In this document: piece after piece, positions 43,039 through 61,075 of the stretch | Layout: the number at the start of each line of letters is the position of its first letter | How positions within the stretch are numbered: the stretch's first letter is position 1 | From: Mesorhizobium sp. WSM2240 | GTDB lineage: Bacteria; Pseudomonadota; Alphaproteobacteria; Rhizobiales; Rhizobiaceae | Direction: 5' to 3' | Assembly: GCF_040438645.1 (NCBI RefSeq) | Contig: NZ_CP159253.1 | Span: 3,472,001 to 3,536,000, forward strand | DNA length: 64,000 nt | Notes under the pieces: generated by a model | Databases searched by the model: none | What the model saw: only the letters and a program-made list of their open reading frames with translations | What the model was told of the DNA's origin: nothing | Translations under genes and position numbers: made by a program

Positions 43039-43168
43039 TGGCACGGCGATTGCATGGCGCAAGACGCGTTGAAGCGCAGCTTGGAAGGCCGATTGCCAAG
43101 CGTGCCGGCATGTGATGACAATTGAACGGGAACACCGCCCGGCCGCAAAGAACCGGGACGGACAATGA

Positions 43169-44275
43169 GTGGGGCGATTTGTGCCGGCAGCACCGGGTAG
43201 GAATGCGATTGAAGTTCGCGGCGTCAGCAAGCTGTTTGGAACCGGCGAAGCGCAAGTGGCCGCGCTCGACAATGTTTCGGTAGCGATCCGCGAAAACGAG
43301 TTCTTCACCCTGCTCGGGCCGTCAGGATGCGGCAAGACAACGCTTCTGCGGCTGATCGCAGGTTTCGACTATCCAACCGAGGGTGAGATACTGCTTTACG
43401 GTGAGGACATCGCGCCGCTGCCGCCCTTCAAGCGGCCGGTCAACACGGTATTCCAGAGCTACGCACTGTTCCCGCACATGACCGTCGGCCAGAATATCGG
43501 CTTCGGGCTCGAAATGCTCGGCAAGCCGAAAGCCGACGTCGAAGCCCGGGTTTCGGCCATGCTCAAGCTGGTCAGGATGGAGGCGCTGAAGGACCGCCGC
43601 ACCAGCCAGATTTCCGGCGGCCAGCAGCAGCGCGTAGCGCTCGCCCGTGCGTTGGCGCCGCAGCCCAAGGTGCTTCTGCTCGACGAGCCGCTGTCGGCGC
43701 TCGACTATAAGCTGCGCAAGGAGATGCAGATCGAGCTCAAACGGCTCCAGCACGAGACCGGCATCACCTTCATCTTCGTCACGCATGACCAGGAGGAGGC
43801 GCTGACGATGTCCGACCGCATCGCAGTGATGTCTTCGGGCAAGATCCTGCAGGTCGGCTCGCCCTGGGACATTTACGACCGCCCGGCAGAGCGCTTCGTC
43901 GCGGATTTCATTGGCGAGACCAATTTCCTGCCGGCCTCCGTCAGCGCCGTTGAAAACGGCATTGCGCGGGTTACGCTGCGGTCGGGAGCGGAGATCTCCG
44001 CCACGGTCGCCGAGGGCTACCAGCCGAAGGCCGAAGCCACCGTCGCCGTCAGGCCTGAACATGCGACGGCGGTGAGAACGGGAGGACAACTGCTGGGAAC
44101 GGTGGAAACCGTCGTTTATCTCGGCACGGATACGCACATCCATATCAATCTGGACAGCGGCGGCAACTTCATGGTGCGCCAGCAGAACATGCGCAGCCAG
44201 TCCTGTGGTTTCGAGGTCGGTGAGCGCGTGGGTGTGCAGATCGCGGCGGACGCCGCGCAGGTTCTGAGGGACTGA
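43169..44275 (+). CDS. potA: Spermidine/putrescine-type ABC transporter ATPase
   Basis: A 368-residue ATPase with Walker [10 protein letters not shown]-loop [11 protein letters not shown], signature ISGGQQQR and Walker [15 protein letters not shown]-terminal TOBE domain (about 285-365) is typical of PotA/PotG. The start is a GTG: 43169 gives the listed length, while GTG 43181 has a better-spaced GTGGGG ribosome site and would shorten it by four residues. The stop overlaps the permease start by one base. It energises uptake of polyamines or a similar cationic amine. Confidence 0.93.
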
Positions 44276-51495: not shown

Positions 51496-53334
51496 TCAGC
51501 CCTCGCCGAGGTCGCGTACCGCGCCGCGCGAGGCGCTGGTGGCGAAGGCGGCATAGGCCTTCAACGCCGTGGTGACTTTGCGCTTGCGCTGTTCGGCGGG
51601 TTTCCAGCCAGCGGCATCCTGCTCTGCGCGGCGGGCGGCGAGCATCGCCTCATCGACGGCGAGATGGATGGTGCGGTTCGGGATGTCGATCTCGATCCGG
51701 TCGCCTTCGCGCACCAGGCCGATGGTTCCGCCCTCGGCGGCTTCCGGCGAGACATGGCCGATCGAAAGACCGGACGTGCCGCCCGAAAAGCGCCCGTCGG
51801 TGATCAGCGCACAGGCCTTTCCCAGCCCCTTCGATTTCAGATAGCTGGTCGGATAAAGCATCTCCTGCATGCCGGGGCCGCCGCGCGGGCCCTCGTAGCG
51901 GATGACCAGCACGTCGCCTTCCTTGATATGGCCGGAAAGGATCGCCTTCACCGTCGCGTCCTGGCTCTCAAACACGCGCGCCGGGCCGGCGAACTTCAGG
52001 ATGCTCTCGTCCACGCCAGCGGTCTTCACGATGCAGCCGTCCACCGCGAGATTGCCGCTGAGTACCGCAAGTCCGCCATCCCTTGAGAAGGCGTGCTCCA
52101 CGTTGCGGATCGCGCCCTTTTCACGGTCGAGATCGAGCTCGTCCCAGCGCCGTTCCTGGCTGAAGGCGACCTGGGTAGGCACGCCACCGGGTGCCGCCAT
52201 GAAGAATTTGCGCACGCTTTCGCTGTTGCTGCGCGAAATATCCCAGCGGTCGAGCGCGTCGCCTATCGTTGATGTGTGCACGGTCGGCAAATCGCGGTTG
52301 ATGAGGCCGGCTTTGTCGAGCTGGCCGAGAATCGCCATGATGCCGCCGGCGCGGTGGACATCTTCCATGTGCACGTCGGCCTTGGCGGGTGCCACCTTGC
52401 ACAGGACGGGCACGCGGCGCGACAGCTGGTCGATGTCTTCAAGATCGAAATCGATCTCGCCCTCATGCGCCGCAGCGAGGATGTGCAGAACGGTGTTGGT
52501 CGAGCCGCCCATGGCGATGTCGAGCGTCATGGCGTTCTCGAACGCGCCCTTCGACGCGATGGTGCGCGGCAGCGCTGTCTCGTCGTCCTGCTCGTAATAG
52601 CGCTGGGCGAGATCGACGATGAGGTGTCCCGCCTCGACAAACAGCCGCTTGCGGTCGGCGTGGGTGGCGAGCGTCGAGCCATTGCCGGGCAGCGACAGGC
52701 CAAGCGCCTCGGTCAGGCAATTCATCGAATTGGCGGTGAACATGCCCGAGCAGGAGCCGCAAGTCGGGCAGGCGGAACGCTCGATGGTCTTGACGTCCTC
52801 GTCAGAGACCCGGTCGTCGGCGGCCGCGACCATGGCGTCGACAAGGTCAAGCGCCTGCGTCTTGCCGGCCAGCACCACCTTGCCGGCCTCCATCGGACCG
52901 CCGGAGACGAAGACGGTCGGAATGTTAAGGCGCAGCGACGCCATCAGCATTCCGGGCGTGATCTTGTCGCAATTGGAGATGCAAACCATGGCGTCGGCGC
53001 AATGCGCATTGACCATGTATTCGACGGAATCGGCGATGATCTCGCGCGACGGCAGCGAATAGAGCATGCCGTCATGGCCCATGGCGATGCCGTCATCGAC
53101 GGCAATGGTGTTGAATTCCTTGGCGACGCCGCCGGCCTTCTCGATCTCGCGTGCGACGAGCTGGCCGAGATCCTTCAGATGCACATGGCCCGGCACGAAC
53201 TGGGTGAAGGAGTTAACCACGGCGATGATCGGCTTGCCGAAATCCGAATCCTTCATGCCGGTGGCGCGCCACAAGCCGCGCGCGCCGGCCATGTTGCGGC
53301 CATGGGTTGTGGTGCGGGAGCGATAGGGCGGCAT
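51496..53334 (-). CDS. ilvD: Dihydroxy-acid dehydratase
   Basis: A 612-residue iron-sulfur dehydratase of the IlvD/Edd family that converts 2,3-dihydroxy-3-methylbutanoate (or -pentanoate) to the 2-oxoacid precursors of valine, leucine and isoleucine. Cluster cysteines are at C122 in [10 protein letters not shown] and C195 in [13 protein letters not shown], the same positions as in E. coli. Lys124 beside C122 is the carbamylated metal-binding lysine of the family. Length and N-terminus ([14 protein letters not shown]) are standard. No other branched-chain synthesis gene is near, as is usual in Rhizobiales. Confidence 0.96.
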
Positions 53335-53565: not shown

Positions 53566-54441
53566 TCACCCCACCGGCACGACATCGACCGACTGCTCGC
53601 CCGCCTGGCCGCCAGTGGTCTTCAACACGCCGACGATCGGGGCTACGTCGGAATAGTCGCGGCCATAGCCGACGGTGATGTGGTCGTTGCCGGCACGCAT
53701 GGCGTTGGTGGGATCGAATTCCTGCCAGCCCATTTCCCTGCCGCACCAGACTTTTACCCAGGCGTGCATGGCGTCCGACCCTTCGAGCCGTTCCTTGCCC
53801 TCCGGCGGGATGGTGCGCAGGAAGCCCGAGACATAGCCGGCCGGAATGCCCAAGCCGCGCAGGCCGGCGATCATCACATGCGAAAAATCCTGGCAGACGC
53901 CTCGCTTCAGCCTGAACGCATCGGCTGCATGGGTTGCTACGGTGGTCGCCTCATTGTCATAGGCGAATTCGTCGTGGAGACGTCGGCAGAAATCGTTGGC
54001 GACGGCGAGCACCGAGCCGGAGGAAAGGCTTTCCGCCGCATAGGCGGTGATCGCCGGGTCGATGCCGGCATGGTCGCTGGAGGCGAGGAAATGATGCGGC
54101 GCGTCCGGCGCGAGCGACAGCACCTGCCGGATCTCCTCGCTGAGCGCCGGCACGGTCGGCGAGACGTCGAGGCCGGGTTCCGACCGTTTGACCGCGACGC
54201 GCGCGCTCATCTTCACGTCGAGCGTCTCATGCGCGTCTCGATAGGCGATGGAAGCGGCGTGATTGCCGAAGAAATCGCTGAATTCCGCGCGCTCTATCGG
54301 CTCGGGCGAAAACGACAGGCTTGCTGCAATCACCCGCTGCACGCCGGGTATGGTCTGCGGCATGACGCGGACCTGATGCCTGCCGCCGCCGGCCCAGGAT
54401 TCGTAGTCATAGTGGAGGGTCAGCCGGATATCGTAGTGCAT
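53566..54441 (-). CDS. Transglutaminase-like cysteine protease-fold protein
   Basis: A 291-residue protein with an N-terminal beta-rich bacterial transglutaminase-associated region (about 1-95) and a transglutaminase-like core. The catalytic triad is visible: Cys183 in RGVCQDFSH, His226 in DAMHAWVKVW and Asp243 in EFDPTNAM. Such proteins usually cleave amide bonds rather than cross-link. No signal peptide, so cytoplasmic. It is the third gene of a set with an ATP-grasp/alpha-E fusion and a second, much larger transglutaminase, separated from the fusion gene by 173 bp containing a mosaic repeat. Substrate unknown. Confidence 0.88.
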   Translation of the reverse strand: MHYDIRLTLHYDYESWAGGGRHQVRVMPQTIPGVQRVIAASLSFSPEPIERAEFSDFFGNHAASIAYRDAHETLDVKMSARVAVKRSEPGLDVSPTVPALSEEIRQVLSLAPDAPHHFLASSDHAGIDPAITAYAAESLSSGSVLAVANDFCRRLHDEFAYDNEATTVATHAADAFRLKRGVCQDFSHVMIAGLRGLGIPAGYVSGFLRTIPPEGKERLEGSDAMHAWVKVWCGREMGWQEFDPTNAMRAGNDHITVGYGRDYSDVAPIVGVLKTTGGQAGEQSVDVVPVG

Positions 54442-54481
54442 GGGAATAAGTCCGCTTTGTCGATGCTAACCTGTCAAAATC

Positions 54482-54606
54482 GGCGCCGCCCCTCACCCTT
54501 ACCCTCTCCCCGTGTAGAACGGGGAGATGGGTCGTCAGCGTTGCGGCCAGCATCCTTCTCCCCGTCATACACGGGGAGAAGGGCCCGGCACGGGGATGAG
54601 GGGCAG
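54482..54606. repeat. Mosaic palindromic repeat within the transglutaminase/ATP-grasp gene set
   Basis: TCTCCCCGT/ACGGGGAGA (54505-54527, loop GTAGA) and CCTTCTCCCCGT/ACGGGGAGAAGG (54554-54582, loop CATAC) are two hairpins. The outer ends CCCCTCACCC and GATGAGGGG are roughly inverted. Bases 54484-54504 reappear exactly, inverted, before pbpC (29298-29318). It separates the fusion gene from the smaller transglutaminase gene. Confidence 0.8.
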
Positions 54607-54614
54607 TTTCATTC

Positions 54615-57026
54615 TTACCCGAAATACGTCCTGGCAAGCGTTTCGTAGAGGCCGCCAATATCCCATGCCAGCGTATCGAGCGCTTCCGGCGTCATCTCCG
54701 CCGGCTCCCGGATCGCGAGCGAAGTATGCAGGCGCAGGACCTCCTTGGCGGCGGGGGAGAGATGGCCGGCAGCGCCCCTGCCCGGCAGATGGTCGATCTC
54801 CGTCTTCAGCCGTTCGAGCTGGAACAGCACCGAGCGCGGATTGAGTGGGTCGAGCGCCAAGAGGTCGACCACGGTCAGCCGGCTTGAGCGGACATGATAC
54901 TGGCGGCGGTGGGTCATGACGCTGTCGCCGATCTCCAGCATCATGTCGAGAGCGCCGTCCGGTGCGTCTTTATACGTCGCGCGCGCGAGCGTGCGGGCGA
55001 TCTGGATGGCGCGTTCCAGCCGCCGGCCGATTTCGAGGAACCGCCAGCCAGTGAAGCGGTACATGTTCTCGTGCAGCAGGCCTGAAAATCCCGCAAGCTT
55101 GCGCAGCAGGACCGTCATCGCCCGCGTCGCGTCGTCGCCGGGCGCAACAGTCGCGGCGAACTGGTGCACGGTCTTCGACAGATCGCGCAACGCCAGCCAG
55201 CCATCCGGCGAGAAGCGGTCGCGGATCTGTCCGGCGCTGTAGACGGCGCTGTCTATATTGGCGATCAGCCCGGCCGGAATGGCGGCCTCGAGATCGATGC
55301 CGAACGGTTCGAGATAGTCGCGGACGTCGGAAAGCAGCGGCAGGTCCGGATCCGAGGTTTCGGCGAGCCGCACATGGTACGCGCGCAGTGTGCGAACCGT
55401 GTCTTCCGAGCGTTCGATATAGCGGCCGAGCCAGGTCAGGTTTTCCGCCGCGCGGCTCGGTAGGCTGCCTGGAATGCTGCGCACGAAATCGTCGCCCTCA
55501 GCCGGCAGCAGCGTGTCGCGCTCGACCGGCCGGTTGCTCACAACCCAGACGTCGGCGGCCTGGCCGCCGCGCTGCATGGCGATCGCCTTCGCATCCAGCG
55601 TGTCGCCGACACGGGCGAAACCGCCGGGCATCACCACCCAGCCGTCGGCCGTGCGCGCCAGATGGACCCGCAAGATGGCAGGACGCGGCTCCAGCCGGCC
55701 GTTGACGAAGACCGGCGTGGTCGACAGCGTCACCGCTTCCTGACCGACAAAATCGCCCCCATTTTCCGTCAGATCCGCCAGCAGTTGCTGTCTTGCCTCC
55801 GGACCGAGCGAGGCGCCAAGCATGGTCGCATCGTCGTCCTCGAAGGCCAGCCGCGTCGACAGGGCCGGGCCGACCATCATCCGATCGAGGTTTCCCTTGA
55901 CATGCCGGCGTTCCTCGTCCTGGCCGCACCACCATGTCGCAATGCTCGGCAGGAAAAGCTCCTCGCCTCGCAGCGCCCTGGAAATTCGAGGCAGAAAGGC
56001 CAAGAGCGCGCGGGTCTCGACGAACCCCGAGCCGAGTGCGTTGACCAGGGTCACCGAACCATGCCGCACCGCCTCGCTGAGGCCTGGCGTGCCGATGTGG
56101 GAATCCGGATTGAGTTCGAGCGGGTCGGCGAAGGCGGCGTCGAGCCGCCGCCACAGCACGCTGATCGGTTTCAATCCGGATACGGTTCGCACCATCAGCC
56201 GGCCGCCGGAAACGGTCAGGTCCTCGCCTTCGAGCAGCATGATGCCGAGATAGCGGGCGATGTAAGCGTGCTCGAAATAGGTTTCGTTGAGCGGCCCGGG
56301 CGTCAAGATTGCGGCGCGGCCGTCCCGATCGCCGATCATGCCGATGAGCGTGTCGCGGAAGCGGCGGAAGAAGCCGGCAAGCCGGTGCACATGCATGTCG
56401 CCATAGATGTCGGACAGAGCGCGTGTCGTGGCGACGCGATTCTCCAGCGCGAAACCCGCGCCCGACGGCGCCTGCGTTCTGTCGCCCAGCACCCACCACT
56501 GGCCGCCGGGACCGCGCCCGAGCTCGAAGGCGCAGACATGCAGGAAATAGCCGCCAGCCGGCTTCACGCCGGCTACGGGGCGCAGATATTCCGCGTTCGA
56601 TGCGACGAGGCCGGGTGGCAGCAGGCCCTGCGCGACCAGCCTGTTGTCGCCGTAAATATCGGCGACGATGGTTTCCAGGAGGTCGGCGCGCTGGATCAGC
56701 CCGGCGCTGATGGCGGCCCACTCATCTTCGTCGATGAGAAGCGGGATATGGGCGAGCGGCCATTCGCGCTCCTTCACCCCCACCTTGTCGTAGAAGCGGT
56801 AATAGACGCCGGCGTCGCGCAGATACTGGTCGGCGCGGGCAAAGCGCTGCGCAAGCTGCTCAGGGCCGATGTCCTCGAGCGCGGCGATGAAATCACGCCA
56901 GACGGGCCGCGGATTGCCGGCCTCGTCGACCATCTCGTCGGCGACGCCGGCCACCGGCCGGTAGCCGTCCAGCAAAATGCCGGGGCTCGGCCCTGCCCTC
57001 TCGCGCTTCTGATTCCCCTCAGCCAT
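54615..57026 (-). CDS. Circularly permuted ATP-grasp ligase fused to an alpha-E domain
   Basis: An 803-residue two-domain protein. Residues about 60-470 correspond to the circularly permuted ATP-grasp family (formerly DUF404/DUF407), with ATP-grasp-like stretches around ILTPGPLNETYFEHAYIARYLG and GSGFVETRALLAFLP. From about 500 to the end is an all-helical alpha-E domain (formerly DUF403), beginning LPSRAAENLTWLGRYIERSED. In many bacteria these are two adjacent genes; here they are one. ATP-grasp ligases form amide bonds, so a peptide-like product or tag is predicted. The gene starts 6 bp after the larger transglutaminase gene; ATG 57026 is preferred over a TTG two codons earlier. Confidence 0.9.
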   Translation of the reverse strand: MAEGNQKRERAGPSPGILLDGYRPVAGVADEMVDEAGNPRPVWRDFIAALEDIGPEQLAQRFARADQYLRDAGVYYRFYDKVGVKEREWPLAHIPLLIDEDEWAAISAGLIQRADLLETIVADIYGDNRLVAQGLLPPGLVASNAEYLRPVAGVKPAGGYFLHVCAFELGRGPGGQWWVLGDRTQAPSGAGFALENRVATTRALSDIYGDMHVHRLAGFFRRFRDTLIGMIGDRDGRAAILTPGPLNETYFEHAYIARYLGIMLLEGEDLTVSGGRLMVRTVSGLKPISVLWRRLDAAFADPLELNPDSHIGTPGLSEAVRHGSVTLVNALGSGFVETRALLAFLPRISRALRGEELFLPSIATWWCGQDEERRHVKGNLDRMMVGPALSTRLAFEDDDATMLGASLGPEARQQLLADLTENGGDFVGQEAVTLSTTPVFVNGRLEPRPAILRVHLARTADGWVVMPGGFARVGDTLDAKAIAMQRGGQAADVWVVSNRPVERDTLLPAEGDDFVRSIPGSLPSRAAENLTWLGRYIERSEDTVRTLRAYHVRLAETSDPDLPLLSDVRDYLEPFGIDLEAAIPAGLIANIDSAVYSAGQIRDRFSPDGWLALRDLSKTVHQFAATVAPGDDATRAMTVLLRKLAGFSGLLHENMYRFTGWRFLEIGRRLERAIQIARTLARATYKDAPDGALDMMLEIGDSVMTHRRQYHVRSSRLTVVDLLALDPLNPRSVLFQLERLKTEIDHLPGRGAAGHLSPAAKEVLRLHTSLAIREPAEMTPEALDTLAWDIGGLYETLARTYFG

Positions 57027-57032
57027 CGCCAA

Positions 57033-60000
57033 TCACAATCTCGGCGGCCGCCTGAGGTCAAGCGTCAGCGGAAATTCGTCCGATGGTTCCTCGGGCCGGA
57101 TCTCGAACGCCGACGGCGTGTGGCCGCGCGGCTCGAAGCGGGCGAGCCGCCGCGCCTCGGCCTCGTTGGCGTTGACCGGGAAGGTCTCGTAATTGCGCCC
57201 GCCGGGATGGGCGACATGATAGACGCAGCCGCCGACCGAGCGGCCGGACCAGCGGTCGTAAATGTCGAAGGTAAGCGGGGTGTTGACCGGCAGCGCCGGA
57301 TGCATGCCCGAAGACGGCTGCCACGCCTTGTAGCGCACGCCGGCAACCGCGATCTCGCGATTGTCAGTTGCCTTCATCGGCACGACGCGGCCGTTGCAGA
57401 GAATAGCGTGGCGCTCGGGATTGAGGCCTTCGGCTTTGACCTGCAGCCGCTCGACGGAAGAATCGACAAAGCGCACCGTACCGCCAATCGTGCCCTGTTC
57501 ACCCATCACATGCCACGGCTCCAGCGCCTGGCGGAGCTCGAGCTTTACGCCGGAGTATTGAACTTCGCCGCAGAAGGGGAAGCGGAATTCGAGCTGCGCG
57601 TCGAACCATTCCGGGCGGAAGGCAAAGCCGTGCTGCGCGAGATCGTCGAGCACGTCGAGAAAATCGGCCCAGACATAGTGCGGCAGCATGAAGCGGTCGT
57701 GCAGCGCCGTGCCCCAGCGGGTGAAACGCCCGTCGAGCGGAGCTGTCCACAGGCGGGCGATGATGGCGCGGACCAGCAATTGCTGGGCGAGGTTCATGCG
57801 CGCATTGGGCGGCATTTCGAAGCCGCGGAATTCGACCAGCCCCAGCCGGCCGGTCGGGCCGTCGGGCGAAAACAGCTTGTCGATGCAGATCTCGGAGCGG
57901 TGGGTATTGCCGGTGACGTCGGTGAGGACATTGCGGAAAAGGCGGTCGACCAGCCAGGGCAGCGGCGGGTTGCCCTGGTCGGGACGCGGCACCTGCGCCA
58001 GCGCGATCTCCAGTTCGTAAAGACTGTCGTGGCGCGCCTCGTCGAAGCGCGGCGCCTGGCTGGTAGGGCCGATGAACAGGCCGGAAAACAGATAGGACAG
58101 CGCGGAATGGCGCTGCCAGTGCAGCACCAGGCTCTTCAACAGGTCCGGCCGGCGCAGAAACGGGCTGTCGTTGGGCGTGGCGCCGCCGACCACGACATGG
58201 TTGCCGCCGCCCGTGCCGGTGTGGCGGCCGTCAATCATGAATTTCTCCGCGCCGAGCCGGGTCTGGCGCGCTTCCTCGTAGATAGCGGTGGTGGTGGCAA
58301 CGCAGTCGCGCCAGCTCGAGGCCGGATGGATGTTGACCTCGATGACGCCGGGATCGGGCGCGACGCGGATGACGTTGAGCCGTGGATCGTGCGGCGGGCC
58401 GTAGCCTTCGATGTGGACCGGCAGGCCGGTCTTCTTTGCCGCGTTCTCGGCCGCCGCGACAAGGTCGAGATAATCTTCCAGCGCTTCGGTGGGCGGCATA
58501 AAAACGCAGAGCCGGCCGTCGCGCGGTTCGACGCTGATTGCGGTGCGCACGGCGCCGCCGATCTCGCCAAGCTCCTGCTCGACCCGGTTCTGCTGGCCGG
58601 TGACGGCGGTGAAGGACGCCGCAGCCTGGCGGCGCGCCATTTCGTCCGCGCCGGCCGCTTCCGCAGGAGACGCGGCGGCTTCGCGCGGCGGCAGCGGCCC
58701 GCGCGGCACTGACGGGTCAACAGGCACGATGAACGGAAATTGCGACGGCGGCACATAAGGCAGCGTGCCGAGTGGAAGGCGGTAACCGACGGGGGAGTCT
58801 CCGGGTACCAGGAAAAGCCTGCCGCGCCGCGTCTGCCATTTCTCCGACCGCCAGCGGTGGCCGGCGGCTTCGGCATTCCATCGCTGCACCGGCAGTACGT
58901 AGCCGGAGGGCTGCGTCAGCCCACGCTCGAAGACGCGCGCCATGCGGCTGCGCTCCTCCGGATCGTTCAGCTTCGAGTCGGATGGATCGACGTTTTCCGG
59001 CAGCTTGCCTTCCTTGAGCAGCCATTCGGCCGGATCCTCATAGGCCTCTGCGACCATGCCGGTATCGATGCCGAGTTCGCCGGCGATCGCGGTGAGCAGC
59101 GTTTCGGCCTGCTGCGGCGTCGTCTTGCCGTCGGCCTTCTCCGTGGCGATTAGCGACGGATCCATCCACACCGGCTCGCCGTCGGTGCGCCAAAACAGTG
59201 AAAAGGTCCAGCGCGGCAGGGATTCGCCCGGATACCATTTGCCCTGCCCGTAATGGAGAAAGCCGCCCGGTGCGAATTTTTCACGCAGGCGGCGGATCAG
59301 CAGATCGGCCTTTTCGCGCTTGGTCGGCCCGACAGCGGCGGTGTTCCACTCCTCGGATTCGAAATCGTCTATCGACACGAAGGTCGGCTCGCCGCCCATG
59401 GTGAGCCGGACGTCTTCCTTTTGCAGCACTGCGTCGACCTCTTCGCCGAGCGCGTCGAGCGCCTGCCAGGAGGCGTCGGAAAACGGCTTGGTGATGCGCG
59501 GATGCTCGGCGACGCGATCGACGCGCATGTCGAACTTGAAATCGACATTGGCGAAGCTCGCCATGCCCGAAATGGGCGCGGCGTTGCGAAAATGCGGTGT
59601 GGCGGCAAGCGGCACATGGCTTTCGCCGGTCAGCAGCCCCGACGTCGGATCGAGCCCGATCCAGCCGGCCCCCGGAATATAGACCTCGCACCAGGCATGC
59701 AGGTCGGTGAAATCGTGCGTCGCGCCGGCGGGGCCGTCCAGCGCGACCAGATCGGGCTTGAGCTGGATCAGATAACCGGAGACGAAGCGCGCGGCGATGC
59801 CGAGATGCCGAAGCACCTGGACAAGCAGCCAGCTCGAATCGCGGCACGAGCCCTTGGCCAGCGCGAGCGTTTCTTCCGGCGTCTGCACGCCGGTTTCCAG
59901 CCGCACGATATAGGCGACCTCGCGCTGGATCCGTGCGTTGAGCGCGACGATGAAATTCACCGTGCTGGTCTCGGAACGATCGATCGTTCCCAGGAAGGCC

Positions 60001-60383
60001 GTGAGCAGCGGCCCGGCCGGCTCGGGCGTGCGGTAGATCGCCAGATCATCGCGGATGTCTTCGGGATATTCGAACGGGAACGCTTCCGCCGAGGGTTCGA
60101 CGAAGAAATCGAACGGATTATAGACCGTCATGTCGGCGACGAGATCGACCTCGATCTTAAGTTCTGTCACCGGCTCCGGAAAGACGAAGCGCGCCAGGAA
60201 ATTGCCGTAGGGATCCTGCTGCAGATTGGTGAAATGATTGGCGGGGCCGACCTTCAGCGAGTGGCTGAGCACTTTGGTTCGGGAATGCGGCGCCGGCCGC
60301 AGGCGGATTATTTGGGGCCCGAGAATGACCGGCCGATCATAGACATAGTGGGTCAGGTGATAGACGGCTGCCAGAATTGCCAT
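57033..60383 (-). CDS. Large transglutaminase-like protein with DUF2126 region
   Basis: A 1116-residue cytoplasmic protein. The N-terminal 280 residues form a transglutaminase N-region and core with the triad Cys180 (KGSCRDSSW), His229 (DLHAWCEVY) and Asp245 (GLDPTSG). The remaining about 830 residues are the DUF2126 region, of unknown structure, which always accompanies this transglutaminase type; it contains recognisable stretches such as [14 protein letters not shown] and [16 protein letters not shown]. The start at 60383 gives the typical N-terminus [17 protein letters not shown]. First gene of a probable operon with the ATP-grasp/alpha-E fusion. A coupled ligase and peptidase acting on one peptide-like compound is the leading idea from comparative genomics; no function is proven. 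Confidence 0.92.
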
Positions 60384-60571
60384 GTGCGCCCGGTGCCTTT
60401 CGTCGGAAGGCCACCTTTCCACACTTCGTCTCGGGCCGCCAAGAATTTATTGCACTGCGAAGAAGGTCTGCCTTATGCGAGTTGAACGCCAGCCATGGTG
60501 TACAGCACGCCACTGGCTTGCTGACCTCTTCCCCCGCCCCGAGGGAGAAGACGGCTAAGCGCCGGGTACCG

Positions 60572-61075
60572 CTACTCGTCCTTCGGCTTTTCCTCGCCGC
60601 CGTCGGTTTCCGCCTGCTTGGCCCCTTCCTCAGCCTGGCGGCGAAGCACCTCGTCGGTGCCGACGATAGTCGTTTTGGTGGCGATGGTGGTGGATACCAC
60701 GGAAACTGGGTCGCTGGCGGGGAACGTATCCTCCAGCCCTTCTTCGAGCTGCTCTTCGAGCGTCTCGGGATCCTGGGCCCTGCCCTCTGTTTTTCGCCCC
60801 ATTTCCTCGGCATGCCGCTTCCGCTCCTCGGCCTGGCGCCGCTCCTCGGCTTGACGGCGGAGCACCTCGTCAGTGCCGACGATCTTCTTTGTTTTGCTGG
60901 CTATGGTCGTGGAGACGACAGAAACCGGGTCGCTGGCAGGAAAAGTATCCTCCAGCCCCTCCTCCAACTGTTCGTCCAGAGTGGTGCGGTCTTCAGCCCG
61001 GCCTTCGGTTCGGCGCGGTTTGTCGTCGTCGCCTTCGTGGGCCTTGCCTGTTCGGTGTTTGCGCGCGTCAGGCAT
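60572..61075 (-). CDS. Hydrophilic protein with a duplicated FPASDP motif unit, probable stress protein
   Basis: A 167-residue highly charged protein. Two near-identical units, about residues 24-78 and 97-150, each contain LEEGLEDTFPASDPVSVVST followed by IVGTDEVLRRQAEE. They are joined by a short Glu/Arg/Lys-rich linker. At DNA level the two copies differ at many synonymous positions, so the duplication is old and the peptide is under selection. Single-copy FPASDP proteins are common small proteins of unknown function in alphaproteobacteria. No signal or membrane segment. The start has a GGAG ribosome site 8 bases upstream, and an EcfG-type promoter lies about 110 bp before it. Confidence 0.8.
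   Translation of the reverse strand: MPDARKHRTGKAHEGDDDKPRRTEGRAEDRTTLDEQLEEGLEDTFPASDPVSVVSTTIASKTKKIVGTDEVLRRQAEERRQAEERKRHAEEMGRKTEGRAQDPETLEEQLEEGLEDTFPASDPVSVVSTTIATKTTIVGTDEVLRRQAEEGAKQAETDGGEEKPKDE

What the first reader, a model, noticed from the sequence alone, without database searches (positions are those of the whole stretch)
53566..60383. Transglutaminase / ATP-grasp / alpha-E gene set with a fused ligase and no nearby Anbu peptidase
A large DUF2126 transglutaminase (triad intact), a circularly permuted ATP-grasp fused to alpha-E, and a second transglutaminase form a conserved but uncharacterised system predicted from comparative genomics to make and trim a peptide-like product or tag. 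In several lineages an Anbu proteasome-like peptidase gene is linked; here ilvD follows instead, and ligase and alpha-E are one chain. This is the best candidate in the window for an undescribed biochemical system.
Basis: partly seen in the sequence, partly recalled or inferred. Interest (0 to 1): 0.7.

Follow-up and report, generated by a model that had tools for sequence, protein, structure and literature searches.

The report
Ligase cluster with a dead ligase
A common but unexplained bacterial gene cluster, probably tied to nitrogen shortage in many hosts, is present and intact here; its supposed ATP-driven ligase appears to have lost its ATP site, the likely working ligase is part of the neighbouring giant protein, and the whole set appears to lean on a second, intact gene set elsewhere in the same genome.

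Summary
The three genes are real and correctly placed: DUF2126 (57033-60383), ATP-grasp fused to alpha-E (54615-57026), transglutaminase (53566-54441), all on the minus strand. Four points change the reading. (1) DUF2126 is more than a transglutaminase: its model shows a glutamine-synthetase-like ligase fold behind that domain (model of middling confidence). (2) The fused ATP-grasp has the glutathione-synthetase fold but lost its Mg-ATP residues: none of 91 fused chains keeps more than 2 of 6 core positions, while 37 of 38 relatives of the Anbu-operon type keep all 6. (3) The fusion is the rule (89 of 100 loci), Anbu linkage the exception (9 of 100); ilvD is incidental. (4) Anbu is in this genome, 1.38 Mb away, in its own operon with an intact ATP-grasp; all 129 DUF2126 genomes sampled hold an ATP-grasp of that type. 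Sigma54-type sites precede DUF2126 in 24 of 99 upstream regions, not in the window; published expression data point to nitrogen limitation. The locus is an ordinary member of a predicted, uncharacterised system; the dead-ligase, two-module picture is the useful result.

The parts
57033..60383 (-). DUF2126 protein, 1116 aa (ATG 60383): transglutaminase-like cysteine domain plus glutamine-synthetase-like amidoligase domain
   Evidence: PF09899 1342 bits, PF08379, PF01841; start inferred from 1116-aa homologues; folds
59502..60383 (-). Transglutaminase-like N-terminal part, residues 1-294; triad C180, H229, D245
57570..59492 (-). Glutamine-synthetase-like domain, about residues 298-938; invariant E332, E682, H729, E851, R853
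54615..57026 (-). Fused chain, 803 aa (ATG 57026): degenerate circularly permuted ATP-grasp plus alpha-E
   Evidence: PF14403, PF04174 and PF04168 in one ORF; start inferred from 803-aa homologues; model pLDDT 89.4
55536..56939 (-). ATP-grasp part, residues 30-497: glutathione-synthetase-type fold without the Mg-ATP residues
56454..56489 (-). Degenerate Mg site, residues 180-191: G181 and R183 where the intact paralogue has E206 and N208
56010..56018 (-). Residues 337-339 (E-T-R) where the intact paralogue has D365-D366-K367
55815..55871 (-). Residues 386-404: G386 where the intact paralogue has lysine K414, and no glycine-rich loop
   Evidence: the alignment in the loop itself is loose because the fused chains vary there
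54618..55469 (-). Alpha-E domain, residues 520-803; both ER motifs kept (E538-R539, E671-R672)
   Evidence: PF04168 194 bits; E538 158, R539 161, E671 158, R672 161 of 161 fused rows
53566..54441 (-). Second transglutaminase-like protein, 291 aa; triad C183, H226, D243
   Evidence: PF08379 and PF01841; conservation
60384..60571 (-). Upstream region of the set: no sigma54-type site (best 7 of 10 in 350 bases), unlike 24 of 98 relatives
51496..53334 (-). ilvD, dihydroxy-acid dehydratase: downstream neighbour, not part of the set
   Evidence: equivalog NF009103 1178 bits; seldom beside the set elsewhere

Best explanation
The window holds one module of a two-module amide-bond system. Module 1, elsewhere in this genome with Anbu, has the intact ATP-grasp ligase plus a separate alpha-E and a transglutaminase. 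Module 2, in the window, has DUF2126 (a transglutaminase-like cysteine enzyme joined to a glutamine-synthetase-like, ATP-using amidoligase), a catalytically dead ATP-grasp joined to alpha-E, and a second transglutaminase-like enzyme. Shown by computation: domain content, triads, folds, loss of the Mg-ATP residues over the whole fused family sampled, purifying selection on the fused gene, and presence of an intact-type ATP-grasp in every DUF2126 genome sampled. Inferred: the dead ATP-grasp/alpha-E chain is a scaffold that binds the same peptide or amine substrate or the module 1 enzymes; the glutamine-synthetase-like domain performs the second ligation (an amine onto an activated carboxylate); the cysteine domains cleave or transfer those amides; and the pathway serves nitrogen limitation in many hosts.
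Against: The DUF2126 model is of middling confidence (pLDDT 73.4), Foldseek alone ranks glutamine synthetases only from E 0.06, and one GS metal ligand (by recalled numbering) seems not to be an acid in the motif alignment. The window's own promoter region has no sigma54-type site, nor does the genome's Anbu operon within two mismatches in the 800 bases before its ATP-grasp. The P. putida data concern module 1 only; that I35_5083 is DUF2126 is my inference. No substrate or product is known. Eight of 129 DUF2126 genomes show no fused-type match, so the dead chain is not absolutely required. Co-occurrence and promoter counts are not corrected for relatedness: 21 of the 24 promoter hits come from two families. 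The six positions were named ATP/Mg positions from motif likeness to GspS-type proteins (E-x-N motif in 11 of 12 rows, SNK in 10, my lysine-loop pattern in only 3) and from recall, not from a solved nucleotide complex of this family. The tree program warned of long branches.
Confidence: 0.6

Rival explanations
1. One reading: the fused chain is an active peptide ligase, and the set makes a peptide-like product or tag that an Anbu peptidase would trim.
For: Pfam calls it ATP-grasp; the Yersinia bercovieri Anbu-operon ATP-grasp releases phosphate from ATP (PMC6376114, passages).
Against: The fused family sampled lost the Mg-ATP residues; the Yersinia enzyme is encoded in an Anbu operon, and that type is intact in the 38 rows compared. 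Anbu was not found by protein search in 48 of 129 DUF2126 genomes.
Confidence: 0.08
2. The fused ATP-grasp is remodelled, not dead: its own conserved residues (R183, Q185, the acid at 337 and others) run another chemistry, with or without nucleotide.
For: Residues conserved in the fused family but different in the intact type, for example Q185 in 80 of 91 and E at position 337 in 86 of 91; purifying selection.
Against: The positions of the glycine-rich loop show no common residue within the fused family, which argues against a conserved nucleotide chemistry of the usual kind.
Confidence: 0.2
3. Nitrogen salvage rather than product synthesis: the transglutaminase-like domains act as amidases or peptidases on amides or cross-links, and the glutamine-synthetase-like domain recaptures the ammonia or amine.
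For: Sigma54-type sites and published nitrogen-limitation expression (PMC5491218, PMC8050072, PMC3325844, passages); association with urea metabolism domains in marine metagenomes (PMC3597751, passages).
Against: Does not explain why an intact-type ATP-grasp is in 129 of 129 and a degenerate one in 121 of 129 DUF2126 genomes.
Confidence: 0.25
4. The fused chain is a decaying relic.
For: Lost active site; stops inside 2 of the fused-type matches listed (G026, G053).
Against: dN/dS about 0.2, no stop inside the other fused-type matches listed, conserved alpha-E motifs, spread over many families.
Confidence: 0.02

Closest known systems
Anbu operon (ATP-grasp, alpha-E, transglutaminase, Anbu), as described in PMC5666114 and PMC6376114
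   Same: Paralogous ATP-grasp, alpha-E and transglutaminase components; a complete copy lies in the same genome.
   Different: The window set has DUF2126, a fused and degenerate ATP-grasp/alpha-E chain, and no Anbu.
Predicted amidoligase / peptide-tagging system of Iyer et al. 2009 (recalled; paper not held)
   Same: By recall it combines a circularly permuted ATP-grasp, a circularly permuted glutamine-synthetase-like ligase, an NTN peptidase and an alpha-helical domain; the DUF2126 locus fits that set.
   Different: Here only one of the two ligase-fold domains of the operon keeps a plausible active site. I could not check whether that paper already noted this.
Putative glutathionylspermidine synthase Mfla_0391 (3n6x), GspS, YgiC and glutathione synthetases
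   Same: Fold of the fused ATP-grasp part.
   Different: 3n6x keeps the E-x-N, K and GSGGYG residues (alignment); the window chain does not.
Glutamine synthetase superfamily (GlnA, GmaS)
   Same: Fold of DUF2126 residues about 298-938, and motif order.
   Different: Joined to a transglutaminase domain; sequence similarity is at twilight level; one metal ligand seems replaced.
Cytophaga hutchinsonii putative cysteine protease 3isr and TgpA (6g49)
   Same: Fold of the DUF2126 N-terminal part and sequence kinship of both transglutaminases.
   Different: Not joined to a ligase domain in the matched chains; no such operon is implied by the match.

Membership tests
Catalytic circularly permuted ATP-grasp ligase (CP_ATPgrasp_2) | Sequence and fold of the family | tested here: met
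Catalytic circularly permuted ATP-grasp ligase (CP_ATPgrasp_2) | Mg ligands, two ATP lysines and glycine-rich loop | tested here: not met
   window has 0 of the 6 core positions (residue string); 0 of 91 fused chains keep more than 2 of 6
Catalytic circularly permuted ATP-grasp ligase (CP_ATPgrasp_2) | ATP-dependent ligase activity | not testable with these tools
   needs protein
Glutamine-synthetase-like amidoligase (DUF2126) | Pfam family membership | tested here: met
   PF09899, described as a putative amidoligase, 1342 bits
Glutamine-synthetase-like amidoligase (DUF2126) | Glutamine synthetase fold | tested here: met
Glutamine-synthetase-like amidoligase (DUF2126) | All metal and ATP ligands of glutamine synthetase | tested here: inconclusive
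   three motifs align in order, one ligand seems replaced, alignment E 0.05
Transglutaminase-like superfamily | Cys-His-Asp triad in both proteins | tested here: met
Anbu operon | Anbu gene linked to the set | tested here: not met
   Anbu is 1.38 Mb away
Anbu operon | Separate, intact ATP-grasp and separate alpha-E | tested here: not met
   fused and degenerate in the window; the second operon of the genome meets it
Predicted peptide-tagging system (Iyer et al. 2009, recalled) | Production of a peptide tag or conjugate | not testable with these tools
   no product known

The most novel reading that the evidence does not exclude
DUF2126 loci are a dependent second stage of the ATP-grasp/alpha-E system: a pseudo-ATP-grasp fused to alpha-E serves as a non-catalytic scaffold, the only ATP-driven ligase of the operon is a glutamine-synthetase-like domain joined to a transglutaminase-like hydrolase, and the pathway works only together with the intact ATP-grasp module, forming and removing amide conjugates under nitrogen limitation.
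Probability: 0.35. Interest if true: 0.75.

Novelty: new member of a known kind. Interest (0 to 1): 0.5.

Why it matters
DUF2126 is in 129 of 397 sampled genomes of the phylum and alpha-E in 232, yet I found no product described, and 'DUF2126' occurs in none of the held papers. Knowing which domains can be active and which appear dead, and that the set was always found with an intact-type ATP-grasp, turns a vague prediction into clear tests: assay the glutamine-synthetase-like domain, not the fused ATP-grasp; delete both modules; look under nitrogen limitation. It might also bear on why tests of one operon gave little: with Yersinia bercovieri Anbu operon proteins no stable complexes were detected and Anbu showed no peptidase activity (PMC6376114, passages); whether that species has a DUF2126 set I did not check.

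Full report
WHAT IS THERE. On the minus strand lie DUF2126 (57033-60383), a fused ATP-grasp/alpha-E chain (54615-57026) and a transglutaminase-like protein (53566-54441), followed by ilvD. Homologue lengths of 1116 and 803 aa place the first two starts slightly inside the ORFs of the ORF tool. The genome is 6.70 Mb in four contigs and the window is on C1. The nearest named homologues are from Mesorhizobium and its neighbours (the best 120 rows of each search).

THE FUSED ATP-GRASP IS DEGENERATE. Its model is good (pLDDT 89.4) and has the fold of 3n6x, glutathione synthetases, YgiC and GspS. But of six core ATP/Mg positions (E206, N208, K367, K414, G421, G423 in the genome's intact paralogue), 39 of 91 fused chains keep none, 43 one and 9 two; 37 of 38 chains of the Anbu-operon type keep all six, and the last has gaps at two. 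The window chain keeps none. That these are the ATP/Mg positions rests on like motifs in GspS-type proteins (E-x-N in 11 of 12 rows, SNK in 10, my lysine-loop pattern in 3) and on recall of the known structures. The two types fall on two sides of one branch (quick tree, with warnings about long branches). The gene is under purifying selection (dN/dS 0.20-0.23 against four relatives) and the alpha-E motifs are kept. So it is best read as a working pseudoenzyme.

TWO MODULES. The same genome has a complete Anbu operon at C1:2.14 Mb, 1.38 Mb from the window set, with an ATP-grasp that keeps all six positions, alpha-E, a transglutaminase and Anbu. In 397 sampled genomes of the phylum, DUF2126 is in 129, alpha-E in 232, Anbu in 161 (Anbu by one protein query). 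All 129 DUF2126 genomes have alpha-E, 122 have two or more copies, 81 have Anbu and in 48 it was not found. All 129 have an ATP-grasp of the intact type, at least 48% identical to this genome's own, whereas the fused-type matches are 26-38% identical (64 of 64; 65 of 65); in two of them (G389, G157) the match, which runs upstream of the likely start, includes stop codons. Eight of the 129 (G291, G036, G049, G064, G076, G218, G362, G380) gave no fused-type match. In 100 of the 129 neighbourhoods fetched, DUF2126, fused chain and transglutaminase follow one another in 81; the fused chain is in 89, the intact-type ATP-grasp in 38, Anbu in 9. In 80 named loci the same order is seen in 70; of the other ten, five are cut by contig ends. 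So the DUF2126 set looks like an add-on that needs the intact module but not Anbu. These counts are not corrected for relatedness.

NITROGEN LINK. Sigma54-type sites (9 or more of 10 positions) lie within 350 bases before DUF2126 in 24 of 99 upstream regions (98 relatives and the window), against a mean of 1.5 and a maximum of 3 in 20 rounds of shuffling, and 8 on the reverse strand. The 24 come from five families, mostly two (f47 12, f46 9, three others one each). Before the intact-type ATP-grasp they occur in 9 of 36 (13 of 36 with a 500-base window), before the inner fused gene in 1 of 90 and before the transglutaminase in 0 of 92. The window has none (best 7 of 10). Published data agree: NtrC-dependent I35_5080-83 in B. 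cenocepacia, which from its description holds ATP-grasp, alpha-E, transglutaminase and a large transglutaminase protein (that this is DUF2126 is my inference) (PMC5491218, passages); for module 1 genes, P. putida PP_2685 and PP_2688 (PMC8050072, passages) and PP2685-2687 (PMC3325844, passage); and urea-metabolism domains associated with these domains in marine metagenomes (PMC3597751, passages).

MECHANISM, AND HOW SURE. Likely: DUF2126 makes an amide bond with its glutamine-synthetase-like domain, and its cysteine domain, with the second transglutaminase, cleaves or transfers such bonds; the fused chain positions substrate or partners; the intact module supplies the first ligation. Anatomy and loss of the ATP site: about 0.85. 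Two-module dependence: about 0.6. Scaffold role, substrate and nitrogen role: 0.3-0.4.

KNOWN OR NEW. The set belongs to a system predicted in 2009 (Iyer et al., recalled; not held) and, in the papers I could search, I found no characterised function: 'DUF2126' is in none, and 'circularly permuted ATP-grasp' is in three, none of which characterises this set in the passages read. Whether the degenerate ATP-grasp was noted in 2009 I could not check. The locus itself is an ordinary member.

Noticed in passing
window 43039-43054, + strand: A sigma54-type promoter sequence with 0 mismatches to the pattern used just before an ABC transporter set that looks polyamine-type (ATPase 43169-44275, permeases to 45997, named by eye). 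Possibly nitrogen-regulated; the window as a whole has no more such matches than shuffled sequence (19, expected 26, up to 2 mismatches).
   Followed up: partly
window 60572-61075, - strand: A 167-aa protein without a significant Pfam or NCBIfam match, built of two diverged copies of one unit (155-nt repeats, 70% alike); no match near DUF2126 in 180 other loci.
   Followed up: partly
L166:3222-4766 and 13 other loci of L067-L166: A zinc-ribbon plus Peptidase_Mx (PF15887) putative metallopeptidase recurs beside DUF2126 in 14 of 100 loci (Pfam on one representative); not found in the window's genome, but the control rang nowhere.
   Followed up: partly
L117:3831-4385 and 6 other loci: A RidA/YjgF-like gene near the set in 7 of 100 loci; PMC3325844 (passage) lists a putative endoribonuclease, PP2689, beside the P. 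putida nitrogen-responsive genes.
   Followed up: partly
L166 (G335) and G218: DUF2126 is split into two frames in G335 and fragmented in G218: possible loss of the module in single lineages.
   Followed up: no
L006:8618-9559: The genome's stand-alone alpha-E scores 320 bits against PF04168, the fused one 194; the Pfam model may be built mainly on the intact module.
   Followed up: no
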